From a virus, in IMG/VR virus record IMGVR_UViG_3300021961_000090, positions 1 through 63,334 of that record: a stretch of DNA of 63,334 nucleotides, one strand, 5' to 3'. Of the stretch, positions 1 to 63,334 are shown in pieces. The position numbers were made by a program, and so were the translations under genes. Each line of letters opens with the position of its first letter. The first letter of the stretch is position 1. Under the pieces are notes generated by a model that was given only the letters and a program-made list of their open reading frames with translations, searched no databases and was not told where the DNA came from.

Positions 1-148
1 ACTGCTTAACTGGTTTCATTTTTGGGTTTATATATCGTTGCCAGACATGGCGTTCAATTTCTATAGAGAAAAACCGTTCCGCGCAGGACAAACATTCTCG
101 CCTGCGTTCCATGTAATAGAAATTAAAATTTTTGTCATAGAACTGTCT
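1..148. repeat. Left copy of the terminal redundancy
   Basis: These 148 bases reappear at the right end (63186-63334) with one difference: a run of five T followed by GGG near base 23 here reads TTTTCTGGG there. Such an overlap is the usual sign of a circular or terminally redundant phage genome that was opened at an arbitrary place by the assembler. It lies inside coding sequence, so it is unlikely to be a true packaging terminus. Confidence 0.95.
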
Positions 149-9697: not shown

Positions 9698-10231
9698 ATG
9701 CTACTGACAGACTTCACAACTGACACGGACAAGTTTGATCTTGGATACGTAGACTGCTTCTACCAGAGGTTGTTCTGCCGGCGGGCGGTTGGGCGGCTGC
9801 TGGAGATTGGGATGTACAGGGGTGAGAGTATCCGGCTCTGGCGGCAGGCTTTCCCCGAGGCTGAGATATACGGCGCTGACATCCAACCTTGTCCGGCGGT
9901 TGCGAATCTGGAGCGGGTGGTGCAGCTGGTGGGGGATGCCTACACGCCAGGATTTGTGAAGGGTCTGCCGACATTTGATGTGATCATCGATGACGGTCCT
10001 CACACTTTTGCTTCTATGGCCTTCTTCCTACAACACTACCTGCCACTGTTGAATGACGGCGGCGTGATGGTGCTGGAGGATATTATCGATCCCGCTTGGA
10101 CGCCAGACCTGCTGCTGCTGATTCCTGGTGGCTACAGGGTGGAGGTGGTAGACATGCGCGGCAAACAGAAAACACCAGAACTGCTGAAGAAATGGCAGCA
10201 CGGGCTGGATGTGATCATCATCCAGAAGTAA
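9698..10231 (+). CDS. Class I methyltransferase (Methyltransf_24/TylF-like)
   Basis: 177 residues. RLLEIGMYRGESIRLWRQAF is motif I with the glycine turn, YGADIQPCP the ribose-binding acidic loop, and FDVIIDDGPHTFASM the motif IV with the DDGxH metal/substrate site of macrocin- and cephalosporin-type O-methyltransferases. Hence probably sugar O-methylation. The ribosome site is weak and the gene directly follows the structured RNA, whose 3' part could act as its leader. Partners may be the glycosyltransferases at 1053-2602 and 43000. Confidence 0.8.
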   Translation: MLLTDFTTDTDKFDLGYVDCFYQRLFCRRAVGRLLEIGMYRGESIRLWRQAFPEAEIYGADIQPCPAVANLERVVQLVGDAYTPGFVKGLPTFDVIIDDGPHTFASMAFFLQHYLPLLNDGGVMVLEDIIDPAWTPDLLLLIPGGYRVEVVDMRGKQKTPELLKKWQHGLDVIIIQK

Positions 10232-10308
10232 CTATCACAAATTCCCTGACGATATAAATTCACAATTGGACACAATAGTCTGTTCCGGTAGGATGTCAAC
10301 TGTCGTTC

Positions 10309-10400
10309 GGCACGGCATGTTCGGGCGTGGCGTGGTCCGGCGGGGCAGTGCCTGGCATGGTGAGTTGCGGTTGGATACGGCTGGTTGGGGTTGGGTAAGG
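10309..10400 (+). repeat. Pentamer array GGCNN, block 1
   Basis: Eighteen consecutive pentamers in unbroken 5-base phase, most starting GG (GGCAC, GGCAT, GGCGT, GGCGT, GGTCC, GGCGG, GGCAG, GGCAT, GGTGA, GGTTG, GGCTG, GGTAA). Degenerate but strictly phased; ends exactly where the first 56-nt structured unit begins. No ribosome site or frame uses it. Confidence 0.85.
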
Positions 10401-10456
10401 GCTGCTGTGCAGCGTACAGATAGTTCTCTGAGCTTTCTGTGCGATGCGTAAGCGTC
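10401..10456 (+). ncRNA. Three-hairpin RNA unit, copy 1
   Basis: 56 bases. Hairpin 1: GCTGC-TGT-GCAGC (10401-10413). Hairpin 2: ACAGA near 10416 with TCTGT 10436-10440, extended by AGT/GCT with one mismatch. Hairpin 3: GATGC-GTAA-GCGTC (10443-10456), a GNRA tetraloop with one U-G pair. See copies 2 and 3 for covariation. Confidence 0.8.
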
Positions 10457-10460
10457 ATCG

Positions 10461-10512
10461 GGCACGGCGTGGCAAGTTGCGGCGGGGCAAGCACCGGCAC
10501 GGCTAGGCAAGG
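10461..10512 (+). repeat. Pentamer array GGCNN, block 2
   Basis: Ten pentamers in phase (GGCAC, GGCGT, GGCAA, GTTGC, GGCGG, GGCAA, GCACC, GGCAC, GGCTA, GGCAA) filling the gap between RNA copies 1 and 2. Confidence 0.85.
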
Positions 10513-10568
10513 GCTGCTATGCAGCGTTCAGCAGGTTGATTCAGTCTGCTGAGCGATGCGTAAGCATT
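10513..10568 (+). ncRNA. Three-hairpin RNA unit, copy 2
   Basis: 56 bases. Hairpin 1: GCTGC-TAT-GCAGC. Hairpin 2: TCAGCAGGTT (10528-10537) with AGTCTGCTGA (10543-10552), ten pairs including two G-U; its base pairs differ from copy 1 on both arms, i.e. compensatory change. Hairpin 3: GATGC-GTAA-GCATT with a G-U closing pair. Confidence 0.8.
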
Positions 10569-10572
10569 ATCC

Positions 10573-10615
10573 GGTCTGGCAAGGATTGGCAGGGCCAGGC
10601 GGGGTGTGGCACGGA
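10573..10615 (+). repeat. Pentamer array GGCNN, block 3
   Basis: Eight pentamers in phase (GGTCT, GGCAA, GGATT, GGCAG, GGCCA, GGCGG, GGTGT, GGCAC) between RNA copies 2 and 3. Confidence 0.85.
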
Positions 10616-10671
10616 GCTGCTAGGCAGCGTACAGGGGCTTGTAAAAGGCTTCTGTGCGATGCGTGAGCATC
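10616..10671 (+). ncRNA. Three-hairpin RNA unit, copy 3
   Basis: 56 bases. Hairpin 1: GCTGC-TAG-GCAGC. Hairpin 2: ACAGGGGCT (10631-10639) with GGCTTCTGT (10647-10655), nine pairs with three G-U. Hairpin 3: GATGC-GTGA-GCATC, all Watson-Crick, with a different GNRA loop from copies 1 and 2. Confidence 0.8.
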
Positions 10672-10675
10672 ATGA

Positions 10676-10725
10676 GGTTCGGTTAGTCCCGGCTGGGTCT
10701 GGCAGGACTTGGCAAGGTATGGTTT
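10676..10725 (+). repeat. Pentamer array GGCNN, block 4
   Basis: Ten pentamers in phase (GGTTC, GGTTA, GTCCC, GGCTG, GGTCT, GGCAG, GACTT, GGCAA, GGTAT, GGTTT), ending a few bases before the ribosome site TAGGAG of the next gene. Confidence 0.85.
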
Positions 10726-10743
10726 TTAACTAGGAGAAAGATA

Positions 10744-11358
10744 ATGTCAAAAGCAAAACAAGTCGCTGAAGTAAGTAATGGTGGTGCGGAATCCATTGAA
10801 ATTGGGTTCCCGTATGTGGCGCATGTCACGATCGAAGGCAACACAGATTTCCTTTTCCATCGCTGGAATTGCGAAGCTGTTGAAACAAAAGCAAAAGCAC
10901 CTAAAAACTCTGCATTAAAAAAGTTTGACGATATTGAGTCTTACGTTTGGCGTAATGACGCTGGTGAGCTGTGCTGTCCAGGCGAGTACTTGCGGCAATC
11001 AATCATCATGGCCTCGAAGTTTAAGCAGGATCCCCGTTCCCCCCGTAAGAGCGCGATGGATCTGACGAAGGCTGGGTTAGTCAGCCTTACTAACTTGGCC
11101 TCATTCGGCAAAACCACATGGGATTACGAAGACAAGCGCCGCGCTGTAGTCCAGCGGCAGGCTGTCAATCGCGTCCGCCCAGCCATCTCCGCAGGCTACA
11201 GGCTTGATTTTGATTTGATGGTGCTGGTGCCAGAATACATCGATAAGTTCTGGCTGCAAGATACGTTACACATGGCTGGCCGGCTGGTCGGGATAGGCGA
11301 CTTCCGCCCAACGTACGGACGATTTAATGTAGTGTCGTTTAATGTTTCTGAAAACTAA
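10744..11358 (+). CDS. Conserved phage protein, possible RAMP-like fold
   Basis: 204 residues with a good ribosome site (TAGGAGAAAGATA). Recognisable family features: NTDFLFHRWNCEAVE, a Lys/Ala-rich stretch, DDIESYVWRNDAGELCCPGE, QDPRSPRKSAMDL and a C-terminal VGIGDFRPTYGRFNVVSF. I have seen this family in uncultured tailed phages without a function. The GIGDFRPTYGRF turn (about residues 183-194) resembles the glycine-rich loop of RAMP/RRM-fold RNA-binding proteins such as Cas5/Cas7. It is flanked on both sides by pentamer arrays and preceded by three structured RNA units, so RNA or repeat binding is a reasonable but unproven idea. Confidence 0.75.
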   Translation: MSKAKQVAEVSNGGAESIEIGFPYVAHVTIEGNTDFLFHRWNCEAVETKAKAPKNSALKKFDDIESYVWRNDAGELCCPGEYLRQSIIMASKFKQDPRSPRKSAMDLTKAGLVSLTNLASFGKTTWDYEDKRRAVVQRQAVNRVRPAISAGYRLDFDLMVLVPEYIDKFWLQDTLHMAGRLVGIGDFRPTYGRFNVVSFNVSEN

Positions 11359-11362
11359 TTCT

Positions 11363-11432
11363 GGCTAGGCGAGCCGTGCTCAGGCAAGGTTTGGTTTTGT
11401 GGGGTCAGCTACGGTCAGGTATGGCATGGGTA
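11363..11432 (+). repeat. Pentamer array GGCNN, block 5
   Basis: Fourteen phased pentamers (GGCTA, GGCGA, GCCGT, GCTCA, GGCAA, GGTTT, GGTTT, TGTGG, GGTCA, GCTAC, GGTCA, GGTAT, GGCAT, GGGTA) start five bases after the stop of the 10744 gene. No 56-nt structured unit is present in this block. Confidence 0.8.
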
Positions 11433-11455
11433 GTTCAAAACGATTAGGAGGGCGT

Positions 11456-11653
11456 ATGGAAAATTTTTATGAAGCGCATTTACTTTTTACCGCTAGACTA
11501 GCGTTCTCCAATTCCCAGCCGTTGAGTTCTGAATTGGTGGGTCATTTACAGAAAGCGCTGGAGCGAACGCTAGAGCAGATTGCCAGAGACAATGGCTTTC
11601 TGTTTGATGCGGCCAGGGTGTGCGTCAACACGAAGGAGGAGGGGATACTGTGA
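11456..11653 (+). CDS. Hypothetical small protein
   Basis: 65 residues starting MENFYEAHLLFTARLAFS; ATG preceded by TAGGAGGGCGT. Helical, with KALERTLEQIARDNGFLFDA. Lies just after pentamer block 5 and starts a chain of overlapping genes leading to the ParB-like protein. Not recognised. Confidence 0.65.
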   Translation: MENFYEAHLLFTARLAFSNSQPLSSELVGHLQKALERTLEQIARDNGFLFDAARVCVNTKEEGIL

Positions 11654-28211: not shown

Positions 28212-28802
28212 ATGGACTACTCTCAATATCCACAAGACCGCACAACTGCTAAGCAAACGGGCGCCAAGTTCTACTACACGGGCAAACCTTGCTCGCGTGG
28301 GCATGTAGCGTTACGCAAAACCAAAGGATCTTGCGTTGAATGCATGAAAGAAGACTGGGCAATTGATAATAAGAAGCGCGCGGAGAAGCCTAAGTCAGAG
28401 GCCGCCAAAGCCGCTGGCCGTCGGTACTACGAAAAGAATAGGGAGACGGTTAAAGCTAGGGCAAACGCTCGGCCTAAAGAAGAAGTGACTCAATACAAGC
28501 GAAAGTACAAAGAGGCCAATCCAGATCTGTACAAAGCTTTGGTTAGCATTCGCAAGCGCCGCCACCGCAACGCTACGCCCAAGTGGGTGACTAAAGAAGA
28601 GAAGTTGGCAATCCGAAAGCTGTACTTGCAGGCGATGAAGCTGACCAAACTAACTGGGGTGAAGTATGTGGTTGACCATGATTATCCGCTTCATGGGAAA
28701 GAAATATGCGGGCTTCATGTCTTGGCAAATTTAAGGATCATTACGCAGGAAGAAAACCTCCGTAAGTCCAACAAGTTACTTGACTCTCCCCCTGCTACCT
28801 AG
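28212..28802 (+). CDS. Free-standing HNH homing endonuclease-like protein 1
   Basis: 196 residues. N-terminal FYYTGKPCSRGHVALRKTKG followed by CVEC looks like a zinc-binding DNA reader; a basic helical linker follows; VKYVVDHDYPLHGKEICGLH then VLANLRIITQEENLRKSN is an HNH-type core (DH, H, N). Strong ribosome site (AGGAGG). It sits alone between a terminator and a promoter after the capsid gene. Related to the protein at 35591. Confidence 0.8.
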   Translation: MDYSQYPQDRTTAKQTGAKFYYTGKPCSRGHVALRKTKGSCVECMKEDWAIDNKKRAEKPKSEAAKAAGRRYYEKNRETVKARANARPKEEVTQYKRKYKEANPDLYKALVSIRKRRHRNATPKWVTKEEKLAIRKLYLQAMKLTKLTGVKYVVDHDYPLHGKEICGLHVLANLRIITQEENLRKSNKLLDSPPAT

Positions 28803-33555: not shown

Positions 33556-34053
33556 ATGCCTAGCCCATTTGACAGAGATGATTTGCTGTTAGCTTGGATC
33601 GCTGGTTTTTTTGACGGCGAAGGGTGCGTCATTGTTGAGCTATCAAACATGCCAGGCTGCATTAGGGGTAAAAGAACTTCATTGCATGCAACATTGACTC
33701 AAACCAGCACAGACTGCCTTGAGATTGTTAAGGAGCGGTTTGGCGGAAACATTAAAGTGTCAGACGTGCGCAAAGAGAATACGCGACGGTGGGCAGTGCA
33801 ATACACATGGGTAGTCAGAAATGAAAACGCCTTAAAGTTTTTTAAGGAAATATTACCGTACGCTATAGTTAAAAAATCTCAGATTGAGCTGGCCTTGCAG
33901 TATCCCTTATTTAATGAGCAGGGTAAAAAGTTTGGCCGGGCAGACAATCCGATTCCAGATGATGTATGGGAAAAAAGATTGCAGATTAGGTTGGGTTTGC
34001 AAGAAATTAGGCAAAGCATGAAAACTGCCGCAACTGTGCTAGAGGCTGCATAA
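33556..34053 (+). CDS. LAGLIDADG homing endonuclease
   Basis: 165 residues. LLLAWIAGFFDGEGCVIVEL is a LAGLIDADG helix with the catalytic Asp/Glu (DGEG); LHATLTQTSTDCLEIVKERF then WAVQYTWVVRNENALKFFKE and ILPYAIVKKSQIELALQYPL complete a single-motif enzyme that would dimerise. Its first nine bases (ATGCCTAGC) are identical to the first nine of the next gene, marking an insertion at that gene's start. Confidence 0.88.
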   Translation: MPSPFDRDDLLLAWIAGFFDGEGCVIVELSNMPGCIRGKRTSLHATLTQTSTDCLEIVKERFGGNIKVSDVRKENTRRWAVQYTWVVRNENALKFFKEILPYAIVKKSQIELALQYPLFNEQGKKFGRADNPIPDDVWEKRLQIRLGLQEIRQSMKTAATVLEAA

Positions 34054-34922: not shown

Positions 34923-35591
34923 ATGACATATACAGAGCTAGTCAACGCCATCAAGGCGTACACAGAGAACTACGATTCAGACTTTGAATCGTACATTCCC
35001 ACGTTTGTCCGGCAGACGGAGACGCGGGTATACAACTCTGTGCAGATTCCTGCGCTGCGTAGGAACGTGACTGGCCTGCTAACGGCAGAGAATAAATATC
35101 TGTCGGCGCCATCTGACTTCTTGGCGGTGTACTCACTGGCAGTAGAGGATCAAGAGGGACAGTATCACTACTTGCTGGATAAGGATGTGAACTTTATCCG
35201 CGAGGCGTATCCCACGCCCACAGATCTTGGCCTGCCTCTGTACTACGCCATCTTTGGCCCGACAGTGGTGAACAACTCGGTTACGACAGAGCTAACGTTC
35301 ATCTTGGGGCCGACACCCAATCAGGCGTACAACGTAGAGATGCACTACTACTATTACCCTGAGTCGATTGTGACCGCAGGGACTACGTGGCTGGGCGACA
35401 ACTTTGATCCAATCCTTCTGTATGGTTCCTTGAGAGAAGCGATTTTGTTTATGAAGGGCGAACAGGATATAGTTTCTTACTACGAAAAAATGTATCAAGA
35501 GGGACTATCTCAGCTTGTGAGACTTGGTGCTGGTCTAGAGCGTCAGGATTCATATCGTTCTGGACAAGCTCGAGTAAAGGTTTCAACATAA
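34923..35591 (+). CDS. Phage adaptor protein (SU10-adaptor-like)
   Basis: 222 residues from ATG 34923. MTYTELVNAIKAYTENYDSD then FVRQTETRVYNSVQIPALRR and KYLSAPSDFLAVYSLAV match the family of podovirus adaptors typified by SU10. Two adaptor-like proteins (here and 32821) with no tape measure support a short tail. Confidence 0.85.
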   Translation: MTYTELVNAIKAYTENYDSDFESYIPTFVRQTETRVYNSVQIPALRRNVTGLLTAENKYLSAPSDFLAVYSLAVEDQEGQYHYLLDKDVNFIREAYPTPTDLGLPLYYAIFGPTVVNNSVTTELTFILGPTPNQAYNVEMHYYYYPESIVTAGTTWLGDNFDPILLYGSLREAILFMKGEQDIVSYYEKMYQEGLSQLVRLGAGLERQDSYRSGQARVKVST

Positions 35592-36151
35592 TGAAATTAA
35601 CAAGGAAAGAAGCATTGCTTGCCAAGGAATCCCAATATTTCACTGGGGTTCCTTGTAAGCATGGGCATTTGGCTGCAAGACGAGCAAAAACTGGTGAATG
35701 CTTAAAATGCAGAGCTTTAAAATTAACAGTCTGGAGAAAAGAAAATTGTGAAAAAGTAAAAATTCACAACACTCACCAGTACAAAAAACATTCTGAAAAA
35801 ATAAAAATACAAGCGAAAAAATATTACATTGAAAATTCTGACGTAGTTAAACAAAAACAAAGAGAGTATCAAAAGAAAAATATTTCAAAATATATTGCAA
35901 ATAACACAAAAAGAGAATTGTCAAAAAAACAGAGAACGCCGGCATGGCTTACGGAAGAAGATTATTGGATGATTGAACAGGCCTATGAGTTGGCTACTTT
36001 GCGAACTAAACTTTTAGGGTTTCCTTGGAGCGTAGATCACGTTATTCCATTGCAGGGCAAAAATGTCTCTGGGTTGCATGTGCCGATAAATTTACAAGTT
36101 ATTTCGGCTAAAGCAAATCGACAAAAGTCCAATAGGTATGAGGTGACGTAA
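35591..36151 (+). CDS. Free-standing HNH homing endonuclease-like protein 2
   Basis: 186 residues. Same architecture as 28212: YFTGVPCKHGHLAARRAKTG then CLKC, a Lys-rich linker, and WSVDHVIPLQGKNVSGLHVP then INLQVISAKANRQKSN. The coding sequence is markedly A-rich compared with its neighbours. Start and stop each overlap the flanking genes by one base (TAATG at both ends), so it is inserted cleanly without breaking expression. Confidence 0.82.
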   Translation: MKLTRKEALLAKESQYFTGVPCKHGHLAARRAKTGECLKCRALKLTVWRKENCEKVKIHNTHQYKKHSEKIKIQAKKYYIENSDVVKQKQREYQKKNISKYIANNTKRELSKKQRTPAWLTEEDYWMIEQAYELATLRTKLLGFPWSVDHVIPLQGKNVSGLHVPINLQVISAKANRQKSNRYEVT

Positions 36152-38085: not shown

Positions 38086-38796
38086 ATGGCAAGCACTTAT
38101 AGCAGCCTGAAGATTGAGTTGATTGGTTCGGGCGAGCAGGCCGGTACGTGGGGAACCACGACAAACACCAATCTTGGTACGGCGGTAGAGGAAGCCATTA
38201 CAGGTTCTGCCAACGTTACGTTTGCAAATGCTTCTGTAACTCTGACGCTGACAGACACTAACGCGACACAGACCGCTCGCAACCTGCGGCTTAACTTAGT
38301 CGGCACGGCAAATGCTGCTTATAACTTAATTGTTCCCGCGATTGAGAAGCAGTATATCGTCAACAATACTCTGTCATATCCAATCACTGTTAAGAACTCT
38401 ACTGGCAACGGTATTGAGGTTGCGCCCAGCACGACGCAAGTTGTGTTTAACGACGGCACAGATGTAAACCTAGCCAGCACGGTTTATCTTGGTGTACCGC
38501 AATCAGGGTCAGATAAAACTGCCGAATACACATTAGCATTGTCTGACCGCAGCAAAGTTGTGGCGATCGGGTCAGGCGGATCTATCAACGTGCCTGATAG
38601 TGTGTTTAGCAACGGCGATGCAGTGTTGGTGTTTAACAATACGAACGCCACGTCTAACATGACGATGAGCATCACGACTGCGTATATCGCCGGCGCGGAT
38701 ACAGATAAGGCTTCGATCTCCTTGGCCACCAGGGGCGTAGCAACTATTCTGTTTGTAAGCGGAACTACCTGCGTTGTGACTGGGAACGTATCGTAA
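38086..38796 (+). CDS. Tail fibre/structural protein
   Basis: 236 residues. MASTYSSLKIELIGSGEQAG then TWGTTTNTNLGTAVEEAITG is a well-known phage fibre N-terminal motif, followed by beta-strand-rich sequence. Its stop overlaps the start of the first propeller fibre (TAATG), so they are co-made. Confidence 0.8.
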   Translation: MASTYSSLKIELIGSGEQAGTWGTTTNTNLGTAVEEAITGSANVTFANASVTLTLTDTNATQTARNLRLNLVGTANAAYNLIVPAIEKQYIVNNTLSYPITVKNSTGNGIEVAPSTTQVVFNDGTDVNLASTVYLGVPQSGSDKTAEYTLALSDRSKVVAIGSGGSINVPDSVFSNGDAVLVFNNTNATSNMTMSITTAYIAGADTDKASISLATRGVATILFVSGTTCVVTGNVS

Positions 38797-40181
38797 TGCC
38801 ACTAATCCTCAAAAACAGAGTCAAGTCCACTACCACGACGACGGGTACTGGCACGATCACGCTCGGCTCCGCTGCGGCAGGCTATCAGGATTTCTCTGTC
38901 ATTGGTAACGGCAACGAAACCTACTACGTCATCAAGAGCGCGACAGAGTGGGAAGTTGGCAAGGGTACGTACACTTCTTCCGGTACCACGTTATCCAGAA
39001 CACAGGTCTTTGGATCGTCTAACAACGGTGCGTTAGTCAACTTTTCAGCAGGTACGAAAGATGTGCTGTGTGCTTATCCATCAGCAGCTACAGCAGGCGG
39101 TGTTCCGTATGGCGATGACAGCTCGGTAGGCACTGACTTATCAGGCTGGCAGGCGTTTTCTACAGCGTTGAATAATGGTGTAGTAGGTGGGCAGACGTTC
39201 GGGAACAATAATACGAACGGAGTGGTGAGTACGTATTCATTGGTTTATACGGCATCAAGTGCGTATAGGGGCGGTGTTTTAGATGTAAATGGAAATTTAA
39301 ATTTTATTCCTTTCTCTGGCGCGGTTGGGCAAAAAGTATCTTTAACAGGAGCTGTGTCAACATATTCAATTTTATTGTCTGGAGATGGATCAAAATATTC
39401 TGGCGGCGTTCTTGCCTCTAATGGGGATATTTATTTTGTGCCTTGGGTTTCGGTTGTAGGACAAAAGATAAACTCGTCTGGCGTTGTTTCAACTTATTCA
39501 AGTCTAAACAATAGTTATTCTGGAGGCGTTTTATCCCCAAGTGGAGAAGTGCATTTTATTCCGTTTGGCGCGGCTACAGGACAAAAAGTATCCGCATCGG
39601 GCGTTGTTTCAACTTACTCGTTGGTCTATACAAATGGGTCTGGCGCATACTTTGGAGGCGTATTAGCCCCTAATGGAGACATTCATTTTGTTCCTTATTC
39701 CGCCGCTGTTGGTCAAAAAATATCTACATCAGGAGTTGTTTCGACTTATTCTTTGGTATATACAAATACAGCGATAGCTGCATATTCTGGAGGCGTTTTA
39801 GCTCCTAATGGCGATATACACTTTATTCCCAGAAGCGGAGTTGTTGGGCAAAAAATATCTGCCTCTGGTGTCGTGTCTACGTATTCATTGGTATATACAA
39901 CAACTGGCGCATATTGGGGCGGCGTGCTTGCTCCCAACGGCGACATACATTTTGTTCCGGGAAGTGCAAATAGAGGTCAAAAAATATCCGCAGCGGGCGT
40001 TGTTTCTACTTACTCTTTGGCCTATACGATAGCCAATAGTTATACAGGTGGAATTTTGATGCCTAATGGCGACATACATTTTGTTCCGTTTAGCGCAGCC
40101 GTAGGCCAAAAAATCTCCACCAACCCCGGCGCACCGCTCGGCCCCGGCATTTGCCTTAGCCCATTCTTGAACAAGCTATGA
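38796..40181 (+). CDS. Propeller-type tail fibre 1
   Basis: 461 residues. Residues ~1-110 (LKNRVKSTTTTTGTGTITLG then GNGNETYYVIKSATEWEVGK) are the virion-attachment domain common to all three paralogues. Then seven ~41-residue repeats around GGVLAPNGDIHFVP, GQKIS and VVSTYSLVYT. Four strands per repeat and the count of seven point to a seven-bladed propeller. C-terminal cap ends SPFLNKL. GC content falls sharply where the repeats begin. Confidence 0.85.
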   Translation: MPLILKNRVKSTTTTTGTGTITLGSAAAGYQDFSVIGNGNETYYVIKSATEWEVGKGTYTSSGTTLSRTQVFGSSNNGALVNFSAGTKDVLCAYPSAATAGGVPYGDDSSVGTDLSGWQAFSTALNNGVVGGQTFGNNNTNGVVSTYSLVYTASSAYRGGVLDVNGNLNFIPFSGAVGQKVSLTGAVSTYSILLSGDGSKYSGGVLASNGDIYFVPWVSVVGQKINSSGVVSTYSSLNNSYSGGVLSPSGEVHFIPFGAATGQKVSASGVVSTYSLVYTNGSGAYFGGVLAPNGDIHFVPYSAAVGQKISTSGVVSTYSLVYTNTAIAAYSGGVLAPNGDIHFIPRSGVVGQKISASGVVSTYSLVYTTTGAYWGGVLAPNGDIHFVPGSANRGQKISAAGVVSTYSLAYTIANSYTGGILMPNGDIHFVPFSAAVGQKISTNPGAPLGPGICLSPFLNKL

Positions 40182-41578
40182 CATTCGTACTCAAAGACCG
40201 CATAAAGGTAACTAGCACCACGACTGGTACGGGTACGTTCACACTCGGCGCTGCGTCAACTGGTTATCAGGACTTCTCTGGCATCGGCAACGGTAATCAG
40301 ACTTACTACACGATCACCAATGGAACAGACTGGGAAGTAGGGATAGGCACTTACACTTCTAGCGGTACTACGCTGTCTCGGGATTATGTACTGGCGTCAT
40401 CTAACAGCGGCGCGAAAGTAGATTGGGCGGCAGGCAGTAAAGATGTCTACGTCCCGCAGCCCGCAGAGAACACGCAGGGATCAGCCCCGACAGCAGACAA
40501 CAGCAGTATTGGCACTGACGGGGTGGCGTTCGACAACTTCCAGAAGAACCTACAGCTAAGCGTCAACGGTGGTGTGACGTTTAAGAACAATAATACGAAT
40601 GGAGTGGTGAGTACATATTCGTTGATTTATACAACAAGCACTGGCGCTTATTCTGGTGGCGTTCTTTCCCCAAATGGAGATTTGCATTTTGTCCCAGAAA
40701 AAGCTGCAAGAGGGCAAAAAATAAATACAAGCACAGGTGTTGTTTCTACATATTCATTAATTTATACAACGTCTCTTGGCGGCGCGTACAGCGGTGGAGT
40801 ATTGGCTCCTAACGGTGATATACATTTTGTTCCATTTAGAGCGCCAAGGGGGCAAAAAATAAATGCGTCAGGCGTTGTTTCTACTTATTCTTTGGTATAT
40901 ACGGCAACTGAAGGATATTTGGGCGGCGTTCTTGGAGTTGACGGGTCAATATATTTTGTGCCACAAACTGGCGCCGTAGGGCAAAAAATATCTACGACTG
41001 GTGTTGTTTCTACATATTCATTAATTTATACAAACGCGTCTGGCGCATACTCTGGCGGAGTTTTAGCCCCTAACGGTGATATACATTTTGTTCCGCATTA
41101 CGCTGCCGTAGGGCAAAAAATATCTACGGCGGGAGTTGTGTCAACATATTCGCTAACCTACACCGCAAACAATGCGTATCAAGGTGGCGTTCTTGCGCCT
41201 AACGGAGATATACATTTTGTTCCACATGCTGCGGCAGTGGGTCAAAAAATATCGGCAACTGGAGTTGTGTCAACATATTCGTTGGTTTATACAACAAGCA
41301 GTGGGGCATATATTGGCGGCGTACTAGCCCCTAATGGGGACATTCATTTTGTTCCAAATTGGGCAAATAGAGGACAAAAAATATCAGCAGTAGGCGTTGT
41401 ATCTACGTACTCACTAAATTACACAGTTAATGATGCTTACGCAGGCGGAATACTTGCGCCAGATGGGAATATTTATTTTGTGCCTTCTGGTGCTGCCGTA
41501 GGTCAACGCATCTCCACCAACCCCGCCATACCTTTCGGCATAGACACTTGCCTAAGCTCTTACCTGAACAAGTTCTGA
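40178..41578 (+). CDS. Propeller-type tail fibre 2
   Basis: 466 residues, paralogue of 38796 (start overlaps its stop). Attachment domain with FVLKDRIKVTSTTTGTGTF, then seven repeats; cap SSYLNKF. Repeats in this copy have the highest mutual identity, especially AYSGGVLAPNGDIHFVP, but differ at the residues between strands, where ligand contacts would be. Confidence 0.85.
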   Translation: MTFVLKDRIKVTSTTTGTGTFTLGAASTGYQDFSGIGNGNQTYYTITNGTDWEVGIGTYTSSGTTLSRDYVLASSNSGAKVDWAAGSKDVYVPQPAENTQGSAPTADNSSIGTDGVAFDNFQKNLQLSVNGGVTFKNNNTNGVVSTYSLIYTTSTGAYSGGVLSPNGDLHFVPEKAARGQKINTSTGVVSTYSLIYTTSLGGAYSGGVLAPNGDIHFVPFRAPRGQKINASGVVSTYSLVYTATEGYLGGVLGVDGSIYFVPQTGAVGQKISTTGVVSTYSLIYTNASGAYSGGVLAPNGDIHFVPHYAAVGQKISTAGVVSTYSLTYTANNAYQGGVLAPNGDIHFVPHAAAVGQKISATGVVSTYSLVYTTSSGAYIGGVLAPNGDIHFVPNWANRGQKISAVGVVSTYSLNYTVNDAYAGGILAPDGNIYFVPSGAAVGQRISTNPAIPFGIDTCLSSYLNKF

Positions 41579-41588
41579 GGATTCAATC

Positions 41589-42977
41589 ATGCCGTATGTT
41601 GTCAAAGACAGAGTAAAAGTAACCAGCACAACGACAGGCACTGGCACGTTCACACTGGGTGCGGCGGTCGCAGGATTTCAAGACTTCTCAGCTATTGGCA
41701 ATGGCAATCAGACTTACTACTGCATCACTAACGGTACTGCTTGGGAAGTAGGCATAGGCACATATACGTCATCTGGTACGACGTTATCCCGCGACACAGT
41801 TCTGGAATCCTCTAACAGCAACAACAAGGTTGACTGGGCGGCTGGAACTAAAGATGTGTTCTGTACTTACCCCGCAGATGCGACAGAGGGTACAGTGCCG
41901 ACAGCAGACAACAGCAGCGTTGGTACGGATTTGTATGCTTGGACTAACCTGAAGAAGCAGCTAGACGCAGGGGTAATTAATGGTGTGCCGTATGCCAACG
42001 GTAATATGAGTGGGATGGTGAGTACCTATTCATTGGTGTATACAGCTGGCGCAACTGTTAATGGGTCTTATGCTGGCGGTGTATTGGCTCCTAATGGTGA
42101 CATTCACTTCATACCTTTTACAACAGTAGGTCAAAAAATAAATTACTTAACTGGAGTTGTTTCTACATACAGTTTGGTAAGAACTGCCGGAAGCACTAAT
42201 TATTGGGGAGCAACTTTGGTAGGAAATGGAGATATTATAATGTCTCCTTATGGAACTAACGTAGGACAAAAAATAAACTCGTCGGGCGTTGTATCAACAT
42301 TTAGTTTGGTAAATGTTGCTGGATATTCTGGCGCGGTTCTTTCTCCAAGCGGAGAAACGCACTTTATTCCTTGGGATGCAGCTGTTGGTCAAAAAGTATC
42401 TGCGGCAGGAATAGTTTCCACTTACACATTGAGATACACAGTTGCTGGCAATGCTTATTTTGGCGGCGTACTTGCGCCAAATGGAGAGATACATTTTGTT
42501 CCGGGGACTGCTAATAGAGGTCAAAAAGTAGCAATTGATGGAACAGTATCTACTTATTCATTAGTTTACACAACTCCTAGTGCCTATCGAGGAGGGGTTT
42601 TAGCCGCAAATGGTGATATACACTTTATTCCCTTGAATGCCGCTGTAGGACAAAAAGTATCTGTTACGGGTGTAGTTTCTACTTATTCACTAGTTGTTGC
42701 TGGTGGATATGCAGGTGGAATCTTGGCGCCAAATGGAGACATTCACTTTATCCCTAGCGACGCAACAGTTGGTCAAAAAATATCAGCGGCTGGCGTTGTG
42801 TCTACCTATTCTTTAGCTTACACACTTAGCGGGGGTAACGCATATAGAGGTGGAGTTTTAGCCCCAAACGGAGACATTCACTTTATTCCATTTTTAGCAA
42901 GAGTAGGTCAAAAAATATCTACAAACACAACAAGACAAATAGGCTACGCTTTATCGCCGTTTTTTAATAAGTTTTAA
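41589..42977 (+). CDS. Propeller-type tail fibre 3
   Basis: 462 residues, third paralogue: PYVVKDRVKVTSTTTGTGTF, seven repeats, cap SPFFNKF. Repeats 2 and 3 are shortened and divergent (GDIIMSPYGTN, GYSGAVLSPSGE), so specificity should differ from copies 1 and 2. Confidence 0.85.
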   Translation: MPYVVKDRVKVTSTTTGTGTFTLGAAVAGFQDFSAIGNGNQTYYCITNGTAWEVGIGTYTSSGTTLSRDTVLESSNSNNKVDWAAGTKDVFCTYPADATEGTVPTADNSSVGTDLYAWTNLKKQLDAGVINGVPYANGNMSGMVSTYSLVYTAGATVNGSYAGGVLAPNGDIHFIPFTTVGQKINYLTGVVSTYSLVRTAGSTNYWGATLVGNGDIIMSPYGTNVGQKINSSGVVSTFSLVNVAGYSGAVLSPSGETHFIPWDAAVGQKVSAAGIVSTYTLRYTVAGNAYFGGVLAPNGEIHFVPGTANRGQKVAIDGTVSTYSLVYTTPSAYRGGVLAANGDIHFIPLNAAVGQKVSVTGVVSTYSLVVAGGYAGGILAPNGDIHFIPSDATVGQKISAAGVVSTYSLAYTLSGGNAYRGGVLAPNGDIHFIPFLARVGQKISTNTTRQIGYALSPFFNKF

Positions 42978-62928: not shown

Positions 62929-63204
62929 TTTCTGGTGGCGCTCAATAGTCATGGCCATAAGATCCCACTCTTCGAGTCTGTACCGTGTATAAAAGCCTCT
63001 GCTTCCTAGTCCGTGGTAGCCAGACTTTCCAACATGGTGTTCAGGACAAAGAGGGATTACCAGCCAGTCAGACGCCCGCTGCGCCCCGCCTACAGCGTCA
63101 CGAGGATGATGCAAGACAGCGGGGGTATAGCCGTTCCCGAGATGGTGACAAAGCACACAACCAAGCCCGGCTACTTCGTCCATATACTGCTTAACTGGTT
63201 TCAT
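62914..63204 (-). CDS. HNH/Ref-like nuclease
   Basis: 96 residues. CVLCHHLGNGYTPAVLHHPR, then QRASDWLVIPLCPEHHVGKS and GYHGLGSRGFYTRYRLEEWD match the Ref/DUF968-type His-Me-finger nucleases found in phages (CxxC, HH, CPEHH). Its end overlaps the giant gene's end by 15 bases, convergently. Its start lies within the right terminal repeat, where it overlaps the stop of the zinc-ribbon gene. Confidence 0.82.
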   Translation of the reverse strand: MKPVKQYMDEVAGLGCVLCHHLGNGYTPAVLHHPRDAVGGAQRASDWLVIPLCPEHHVGKSGYHGLGSRGFYTRYRLEEWDLMAMTIERHQKSLAE

Positions 63205-63334
63205 TTTCTGGGTTTATATATCGTTGCCAGACATGGCGTTCAATTTCTATAGAGAAAAACCGTTCCGCGCAGGACAAACATTCTCGCCTGCGTTCCATGT
63301 AATAGAAATTAAAATTTTTGTCATAGAACTGTCT
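63186..63334. repeat. Right copy of the terminal redundancy
   Basis: 149 bases equal to 1-148 plus one inserted C (TTTTCTGGG). This version gives a sensible stop codon (63193-63191) for the zinc-ribbon protein and separate genes, so it is probably the correct reading. Confidence 0.95.
63191..63334 (-). CDS. 3' part of the NrdR-like zinc-ribbon gene
   Basis: Continuation of the gene at 1-193 across the circle junction: on the joined molecule it is 62 residues, ending HVWQRYINPENETS. The stop TAA lies 11 bases inside the following HNH gene. Confidence 0.7.
   Translation of the reverse strand, partial: RQFYDKNFNFYYMERRRECLSCAERFFSIEIERHVWQRYINPENETS

What the first reader, a model, noticed from the sequence alone, without database searches (positions are those of the whole stretch)
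10401..10671. Three tandem 56-nt RNA units with covarying hairpins
Each unit is exactly 56 bases and folds into three adjacent hairpins. Hairpin 1 is constant in stem and variable in loop; hairpin 2 keeps pairing although both arms change (ACAGA/TCTGT, TCAGCAG/CTGCTGA, ACAGGGGCT/GGCTTCTGT); hairpin 3 is GATGC-GNRA-GCRTY with loops GTAA, GTAA, GTGA. Compensatory change within one window is direct evidence of selection on RNA structure. G-U pairs and GNRA loops exist only on the plus strand, fixing orientation. I know of no described phage RNA with this form.
Basis: partly seen in the sequence, partly recalled or inferred. Interest (0 to 1): 0.92.

Follow-up and report, generated by a model that had tools for sequence, protein, structure and literature searches.

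The report
Guide-RNA tails of a phage VIPR system
The three folded RNA pieces are real: each follows a tract of five-base repeats that spells a guide RNA for a recently described CRISPR-like system (VIPR), and one of these guides matches a conserved gene of other freshwater phages.

Summary
Three 56-nt plus-strand units fold far better than shuffles, and hairpin 2 covaries across 11 homologues (23 double-change cells vs 6.2 expected). They are not strictly tandem: tracts of GGYNN pentamers separate them, and each tract ends in GG directly before a unit. The next gene (10744-11358) encodes a RAMP protein. Its profile matches SUSP1 Vipr (PDB 36pp, E=2.8e-10) and its model matches Csm3/Cas7. This is a VIPR locus (Viral Interference Programmable Repeat; PMC13142463), and the units are the structured segments that cap its guide RNAs (vrRNAs). 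Reading tract 2 by the published 1-nt-skip rule gave one IMG/VR hit, in a conserved phage gene (TVKTGKPTYK), with the skipped base at the codon wobble position. The twin phage L002 matches 10/10 dinucleotides, the window 9/10. Two unrelated guides from sister phages hit the neighbouring gene of the same phage family at 18/18. Other skip rules and shuffled guides never reached 17/18. New here are the member, its three-hairpin cap (hairpin 2 recurs beside every SUSP1 array), the lack of a detected linked accessory gene, and a natural target. Transcription and processing are untested.

The parts
10309..10400 (+). vrRNA tract T1: 18 GGYNN-type pentamers (NN: AC AT CG GT GT CC GG AG CT AT GA GC TG AC TG GG TG AA) plus terminal GG
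   Evidence: 5-nt GG periodicity
10401..10456 (+). 56-nt unit 1: hairpin 1 (10401-10413), hairpin 2 (10414-10442), hairpin 3 with GUAA loop (10443-10456)
10461..10512 (+). vrRNA tract T2: 10 pentamers (NN: AC GT AA GC GG AA CC AC TA AA) plus GG; matches TVKTGKPTYK / TLKAGKPTYK codons in L091-family phages at 9/10 dinucleotides under the 1-nt skip rule
10513..10568 (+). 56-nt unit 2: hairpin 1 (10513-10525), hairpin 2 (10526-10554), hairpin 3 (10555-10568); an alternative long fold is slightly more stable
10573..10615 (+). vrRNA tract T3: 8 pentamers (NN: CT AA TT AG CA GG GT AC) plus GGA
10616..10671 (+). 56-nt unit 3: hairpin 1 (10616-10628), hairpin 2 (10629-10657), hairpin 3 with GUGA loop (10658-10671)
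10676..10722 (+). tract T4: 9 pentamers plus GG, without the three-hairpin unit; runs into TTTTTAAC and the vipr ribosome-binding site (AGGAG 10732-10736)
   Evidence: in L004 and L011 this position carries a version of the T2 guide
10744..11358 (+). vipr homologue, 204 aa, RAMP (Cas7/Csm3-like) fold
   Evidence: PDB 36pp SUSP1 Vipr E=2.8e-10; hhalign 97.4%; AlphaFold2 pLDDT 86.9; Foldseek Csm3/Cas7 E about 1e-6
11363..11429 (+). tract T5: 13 pentamers plus GG downstream of vipr; no three-hairpin unit
10267..10294 (+). weak sigma-70-like promoter just upstream of T1 (TGGACA-16-TAGGAT)
   Evidence: 9 of 12 matches, not above the shuffle expectation

Best explanation
The locus is a phage-encoded VIPR system. 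A plus-strand transcript carries three to five vrRNA guides, each a tract of GGYNN pentamers. Tracts T1-T3 are each capped by the 56-nt structured unit. Vipr, encoded immediately downstream, is inferred to coat the GGY scaffold as a filament, leaving the NN dinucleotides to pair with double-stranded DNA with one target base skipped per repeat. T2 is inferred to repress a conserved early gene next to a Sak4-like recombinase gene in another phage family that uses freshwater hosts, and so to act in phage-phage competition. Shown here: the tracts, the Vipr homology and fold, RNA structure under selection, and a target match in three independent guides of the clade that follows the 1-nt-skip, wobble-aligned rule. 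Inferred: transcription, processing, RNP assembly and repression. Within the unit, hairpin 1 is most likely the tail stem of the preceding vrRNA. Hairpin 2 is probably a boundary or processing hairpin, because a related hairpin lies at every SUSP1 array boundary. Hairpin 3 is an optional elaboration of the GAUG that precedes the next tract.
For: Vipr: profile hit to PDB 36pp E=2.8e-10, hhalign probability 97.4%, model fold Csm3/Cas7. GGYNN tracts: matching the GGY/NN vrRNAs described in PMC13142463 and those in the SUSP1 locus itself. Each unit follows the terminal GG of a tract; all 28 model hits above noise lie upstream of vipr in the window and its close relatives. Covariation. Target: the T2 pattern hits one IMG/VR contig; of 42 distinct guides, 4 reach at least 17/18 in 49 loci of that phage family under skip 1, none under skips 0, 2 or 3, none in 12 order-shuffled sets; 135 versus 3, 1 and 1 places at 16/18 or better. 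The L003 guide is 11/11 dinucleotides on L102 and the L002 guide 10/10 on L091. Skipped bases fall at codon position 3 for L003, L011 and T2.
Against: The window's T2 guide has one mismatched dinucleotide in every target tested (at most 9/10). T1, T3, T4 and T5 have no convincing target. T3 (8) and T1 (18 repeats) fall outside the published range of 9-16, and several pentamers are imperfect. No accessory gene shared by the loci was found within 3.5 kb of vipr on the same strand. No transcript data exist.
Confidence: 0.92

Rival explanations
1. The whole 56-nt unit is the mature 3' tail of the vrRNA (three hairpins retained and bound by Vipr), not a boundary or processing element.
For: The unit directly follows the terminal GG of each tract, has constant length, and PMC13142463 describes an invariable structured 3' tail.
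Against: Hairpin 3 is absent in several relatives, where the next tract starts right after GCGATG (L005, L006, L008). The hairpin 2 element occurs in SUSP1 between a different tail and the next tract.
Confidence: 0.4
2. The tracts and hairpins are mainly a 5' leader of the vipr mRNA through which Vipr controls its own synthesis.
For: The array abuts the vipr ribosome-binding site, and T4 lacks a cap and runs into it in the close relatives inspected.
Against: NN positions match conserved sites in foreign phage genes, which a leader would not need. Tracts also lie downstream of vipr (T5; L004-L012).
Confidence: 0.06
3. The unit is a self-cleaving ribozyme, like the hammerheads interspersed in some VIPR arrays.
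For: PMC13142463 reports hammerhead-interspersed arrays, and hairpin 2 sits at array boundaries.
Against: No hammerhead core is visible; no Rfam family matches at gathering score, and only chance-level hits at relaxed thresholds.
Confidence: 0.06
4. A DNA element such as a replication origin, with strand-specific hairpins and G-rich repeats.
For: It lies at the switch from leftward to rightward genes near replication genes, with positive GC skew.
Against: GNRA and UUCG loop swaps and G-U pairs point to RNA. The GGYNN register and target matches are explained by VIPR.
Confidence: 0.02

Closest known systems
VIPR system of Escherichia phage SUSP1 (type II; PMC13142463, PDB 36pp)
   Same: Vipr RAMP protein; GGYNN guide tracts beside vipr; structured element after each tract; 1-nt-skip targeting with the skipped base at the wobble position; a hairpin with UCUUCUAxGAGGG...GAUG at array boundaries.
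   Different: Cap is three hairpins rather than the pseudoknot-containing tail reported for SUSP1; the array is upstream of vipr, with T5 downstream; no vap1 homologue seen; Vipr is only distantly related (hhalign 28% identity).
Class 1 CRISPR-Cas backbone proteins Csm3/Cas7
   Same: RAMP fold of the protein.
   Different: No Cas gene was seen among the neighbouring proteins scanned; the guide is a pentamer tract, not a repeat-spacer array, and pairing is discontinuous.
TIGR-Tas (PMC12045711)
   Same: Phage-encoded RNA-guided system with tandem guide RNAs (abstract).
   Different: The protein here is a RAMP, not a Tas protein; tract design and code differ.

Membership tests
VIPR | Vipr protein: single-RRM RAMP homologue | tested here: met
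   36pp E=2.8e-10; hhalign 97.4%; AlphaFold2/Foldseek Csm3-Cas7
VIPR | vrRNA tract of 9-16 YNNGG repeats with conserved GGY and variable NN | tested here: met
   T1 18, T2 10, T3 8, T4 9, T5 13 repeats; period-5 peak in many relatives. T1 and T3 lie outside 9-16 and some pentamers are imperfect, as in SUSP1 itself
VIPR | Structured invariable element 3' of the tract | tested here: met
   56-nt unit directly after the terminal GG; covariation
VIPR | Targets specified by NN with one skipped base | tested here: met
   sequence evidence only, and 9/10 for the window's own guide
VIPR | Accessory vap gene beside vipr (typical, not universal) | tested here: inconclusive
   No ORF shared across loci other than vipr with consistent placement within 3.5 kb on the + strand; the DSL-LC04 neighbour is not similar to the SUSP1 gene after vipr
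VIPR | About 100-nt vrRNAs made and bound by Vipr | not testable with these tools
   needs small-RNA sequencing and pull-down
VIPR type II (SUSP1/P. fulva clade) | Tail with pseudoknot | tested here: not met
   Consensus of 11 units is three nested hairpins; no pseudoknot-aware prediction was run. So membership of type II is not claimed
Hammerhead ribozyme | Rfam hammerhead match | tested here: not met
CRISPR-Cas | Repeat-spacer array with cas genes | tested here: not met
   Repeats found are GGYNN pentamers; no Cas families among the neighbouring proteins scanned

The most novel reading that the evidence does not exclude
Hairpin 2 is a conserved vrRNA boundary element shared by distant VIPR lineages (this clade and SUSP1). 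It marks where a multi-guide precursor is cut, leaving a GAUG 5' handle (expanded to a GNRA hairpin here) on each vrRNA, so VIPR would have a crRNA-like processing logic not described in the main text of the founding paper.
Probability: 0.35. Interest if true: 0.75.

Novelty: new member of a known kind. Interest (0 to 1): 0.68.

Why it matters
VIPR rests so far on one preprint and two characterised relatives. This locus is an independent lineage, found blind from its RNA structure, whose natural guides obey the published 1-nt-skip rule. It supplies a natural target: adjacent early genes, upstream of a Sak4-like recombinase gene, of a phage family found in freshwater metagenomes. It also offers a covariation-supported cap and a boundary hairpin shared with SUSP1, which makes vrRNA maturation testable.

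Tried and rejected
Rfam at gathering and relaxed thresholds: nothing meaningful. ARAGORN: no tRNA or tmRNA. Targets for T1 (10 repeats exact, 0 hits; 8 repeats, 12 hits whose flanking repeats match at chance level), for T5 (0 hits) and for T4 (4 contigs of one homologous T4-like region whose wobble frame is interrupted by stops, judged chance). T1, T4 and T5 patterns with mismatches in nine whole records holding the target family: none. L082 and L084, fetched by the unit pattern, are coding regions of unrelated phages without arrays and were rejected as chance. Negative-strand hits of the covariance model are the mirror of the true hairpins. vap homology: none found. Considered and dropped: DNA origin, ribozyme, TIGR.

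Full report
What is there. The three 56-nt units are at 10401-10456, 10513-10568 and 10616-10671 on the plus strand. They fold at -27.4, -29.7 and -30.7 kcal/mol with z-scores of -3.9 to -4.9, and the minus strand folds much less well. Unit 2's best fold is one long hairpin instead of three, so the three-hairpin form rests on units 1 and 3 and on the homologues.

Selection on RNA structure. Eleven distinct 56-nt homologues from phages with closely related downstream genes (82% identity or more) keep 99.2% of the cells paired. There are 23 double-change cells against 6.2 +/- 2.0 in shuffles, and slid registers fall to 28-49%. All double changes are in hairpin 2; hairpins 1 and 3 are too constant to test by covariation. 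In wider relatives hairpin 1 swaps its triloop for GAAA, GCAA or UUCG loops, and hairpin 3 is missing in some. So hairpins 1 and 2 are the core.

What lies between them. The sequence around the units is a series of pentamers of the form GGYNN. GG dinucleotides in the 600 nt upstream of the next gene repeat at spacings 5 and 10 in the window and in many relatives; in the window the strongest signal is at 10201-10800 and a second at 11301-11500, on the plus strand only. Each of the tracts T1-T3 ends with GG directly in front of a unit. T4 has no unit and runs into the ribosome-binding site of the next gene; T5 lies after that gene.

The gene. ORF 10744-11358 has no Pfam hit and one PHROG of unknown function. 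A profile of 50 relatives hits one solved structure, PDB 36pp 'SUSP1 Vipr protein', E=2.8e-10. Profile comparison with the SUSP1 protein gives 97.4% probability. The AlphaFold2 model (mean pLDDT 86.9) matches Csm3/Cas7 backbone proteins of type III and type VII CRISPR complexes. The VIPR preprint (PMC13142463) describes exactly this pairing: a minimal RAMP protein and vrRNAs of alternating GGY/NN, read with one skipped base per repeat, followed by a structured tail. The SUSP1 locus itself shows the same tracts.

A target. T2 reads AC GT AA GC GG AA CC AC TA AA. With one skipped base, and allowing the two variants seen in relatives, the pattern occurs in one contig of the IMG/VR collection (L091). 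By my own rough estimate from the pattern's specificity and an assumed collection size, about 0.3 chance hits would be expected, so this alone proves little. But the site reads ACG GTC AAG ACC GGC AAG CCC ACC TAC AAG, that is TVKTGKPTYK in frame in a conserved gene, with every skipped base at the wobble position. The near-identical phage L002 differs in one T2 dinucleotide (AC for GC), and its guide then matches 10 of 10. Relatives of L091 were then fetched and all guides of the clade tested against them. Guides of L003 and L011 with different sequences match the neighbouring gene at 18/18 over nine repeats, the L003 guide at 11 of 11 dinucleotides, again with skipped bases at codon position 3. 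Of 42 distinct guides, 4 reach 17/18 or better under skip 1, none under skip 0, 2 or 3, and none in 12 order-shuffled sets. Two of the four (T2 and its L004 homologue) were used to find the family and are not independent; the other two are. The targeted gene pair lies just upstream of a Sak4-like ssDNA annealing gene. Among window ORFs only a distant helicase resemblance (about 26% identity) links the two phage families.

How it most likely works. Shown: tracts, protein, structure under selection, target matches. Inferred from the preprint: Vipr assembles on the vrRNA and silences the target gene. The part played by the unit itself is less certain. A covariance model of hairpins 1-2 finds 28 copies above noise, all in arrays of this clade. 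Searched against the SUSP1 locus alone, its five best hits are hairpins at the array boundaries and before vipr, sharing UCUUCUAxGAGGG, and two of them end in GAUG just before a tract. In SUSP1 the spacing between consecutive such hairpins is about 100-125 nt, close to the reported vrRNA length of about 100 nt. I therefore think hairpin 2 marks where guides are separated, hairpin 1 closes the upstream guide and the GAUG/hairpin 3 leads the next one; the alternative, that all 56 nt are the mature tail, is nearly as likely.

Membership and novelty. All testable defining features of VIPR are met, so I file it as a VIPR system. I do not assign it to type II: the tail pseudoknot reported for the SUSP1 clade was not found, though no pseudoknot-aware prediction was run. 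The type could not be checked because the preprint's supplement could not be opened here. It is a new member of a known kind, with a cap that may prove to be a distinct variant.

Limits. No RNA data; hosts unknown; only one of the window's five tracts has a target, and that with one mismatched dinucleotide.

Noticed in passing
L016 4810-4912; L015; L088 5800-5885: Guide tracts in more distant relatives are enclosed by inverted repeats (GTTTCATTGGAAAAAC / GTTTTTCCAATGAGAC; CTTAGTGGGG / CCCCACTAAG), so the tract would sit in the loop of a long stem: a different vrRNA architecture without the three-hairpin unit.
   Followed up: no
L021 4424-4909 and 2971-3266: Very long, nearly perfect runs of GGYNN repeats (73 in a row, then 24 more after a one-base frame shift; a second cluster of 22 and 37) without a visible cap.
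   Followed up: no
L066 4443-5023; L067 3081-3641: Several tracts, each followed by the same GGGCCTTATTGCRAGGAAT sequence: another constant tail type downstream of vipr.
   Followed up: no
L009 854-900, L011 4749-4800, L012 4360-4515: A second cap class in the same clade: GCTG-ACTA/GCAA-CAGC followed by GGATAGGTGATTGGCAACAGTCATCCTTCC in place of hairpin 2.
   Followed up: partly
window 10461-10512 versus L004 4927-4981 and L011 4920-4979: The same guide sits at the capped position in the window and at the uncapped position directly before vipr in L004 and L011, so uncapped tracts are probably guides too and guides move between positions.
   Followed up: partly
window 10513-10568: Unit 2 has an alternative long hairpin in which hairpin 1 pairs with hairpin 3, of slightly lower energy than the three-hairpin form.
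   Followed up: no
window 1-148 and 63186-63334: Near-identical direct repeat at the two ends (one small indel), suggesting that the record is a complete genome cut at a repeat.
   Followed up: no
window 38796-42977: Three paralogous 450-466 aa proteins built from about 43-residue repeats (GGVLAPNGDIHFVP...), probably tail-fibre-like and recently duplicated.
   Followed up: no
window 33556-34053, 28212-28802, 35591-36151: Small ORFs resembling homing endonucleases (a WIAGFFDGEG motif; Cys/His-rich HNH-like proteins) among the structural genes; judged by eye only.
   Followed up: no
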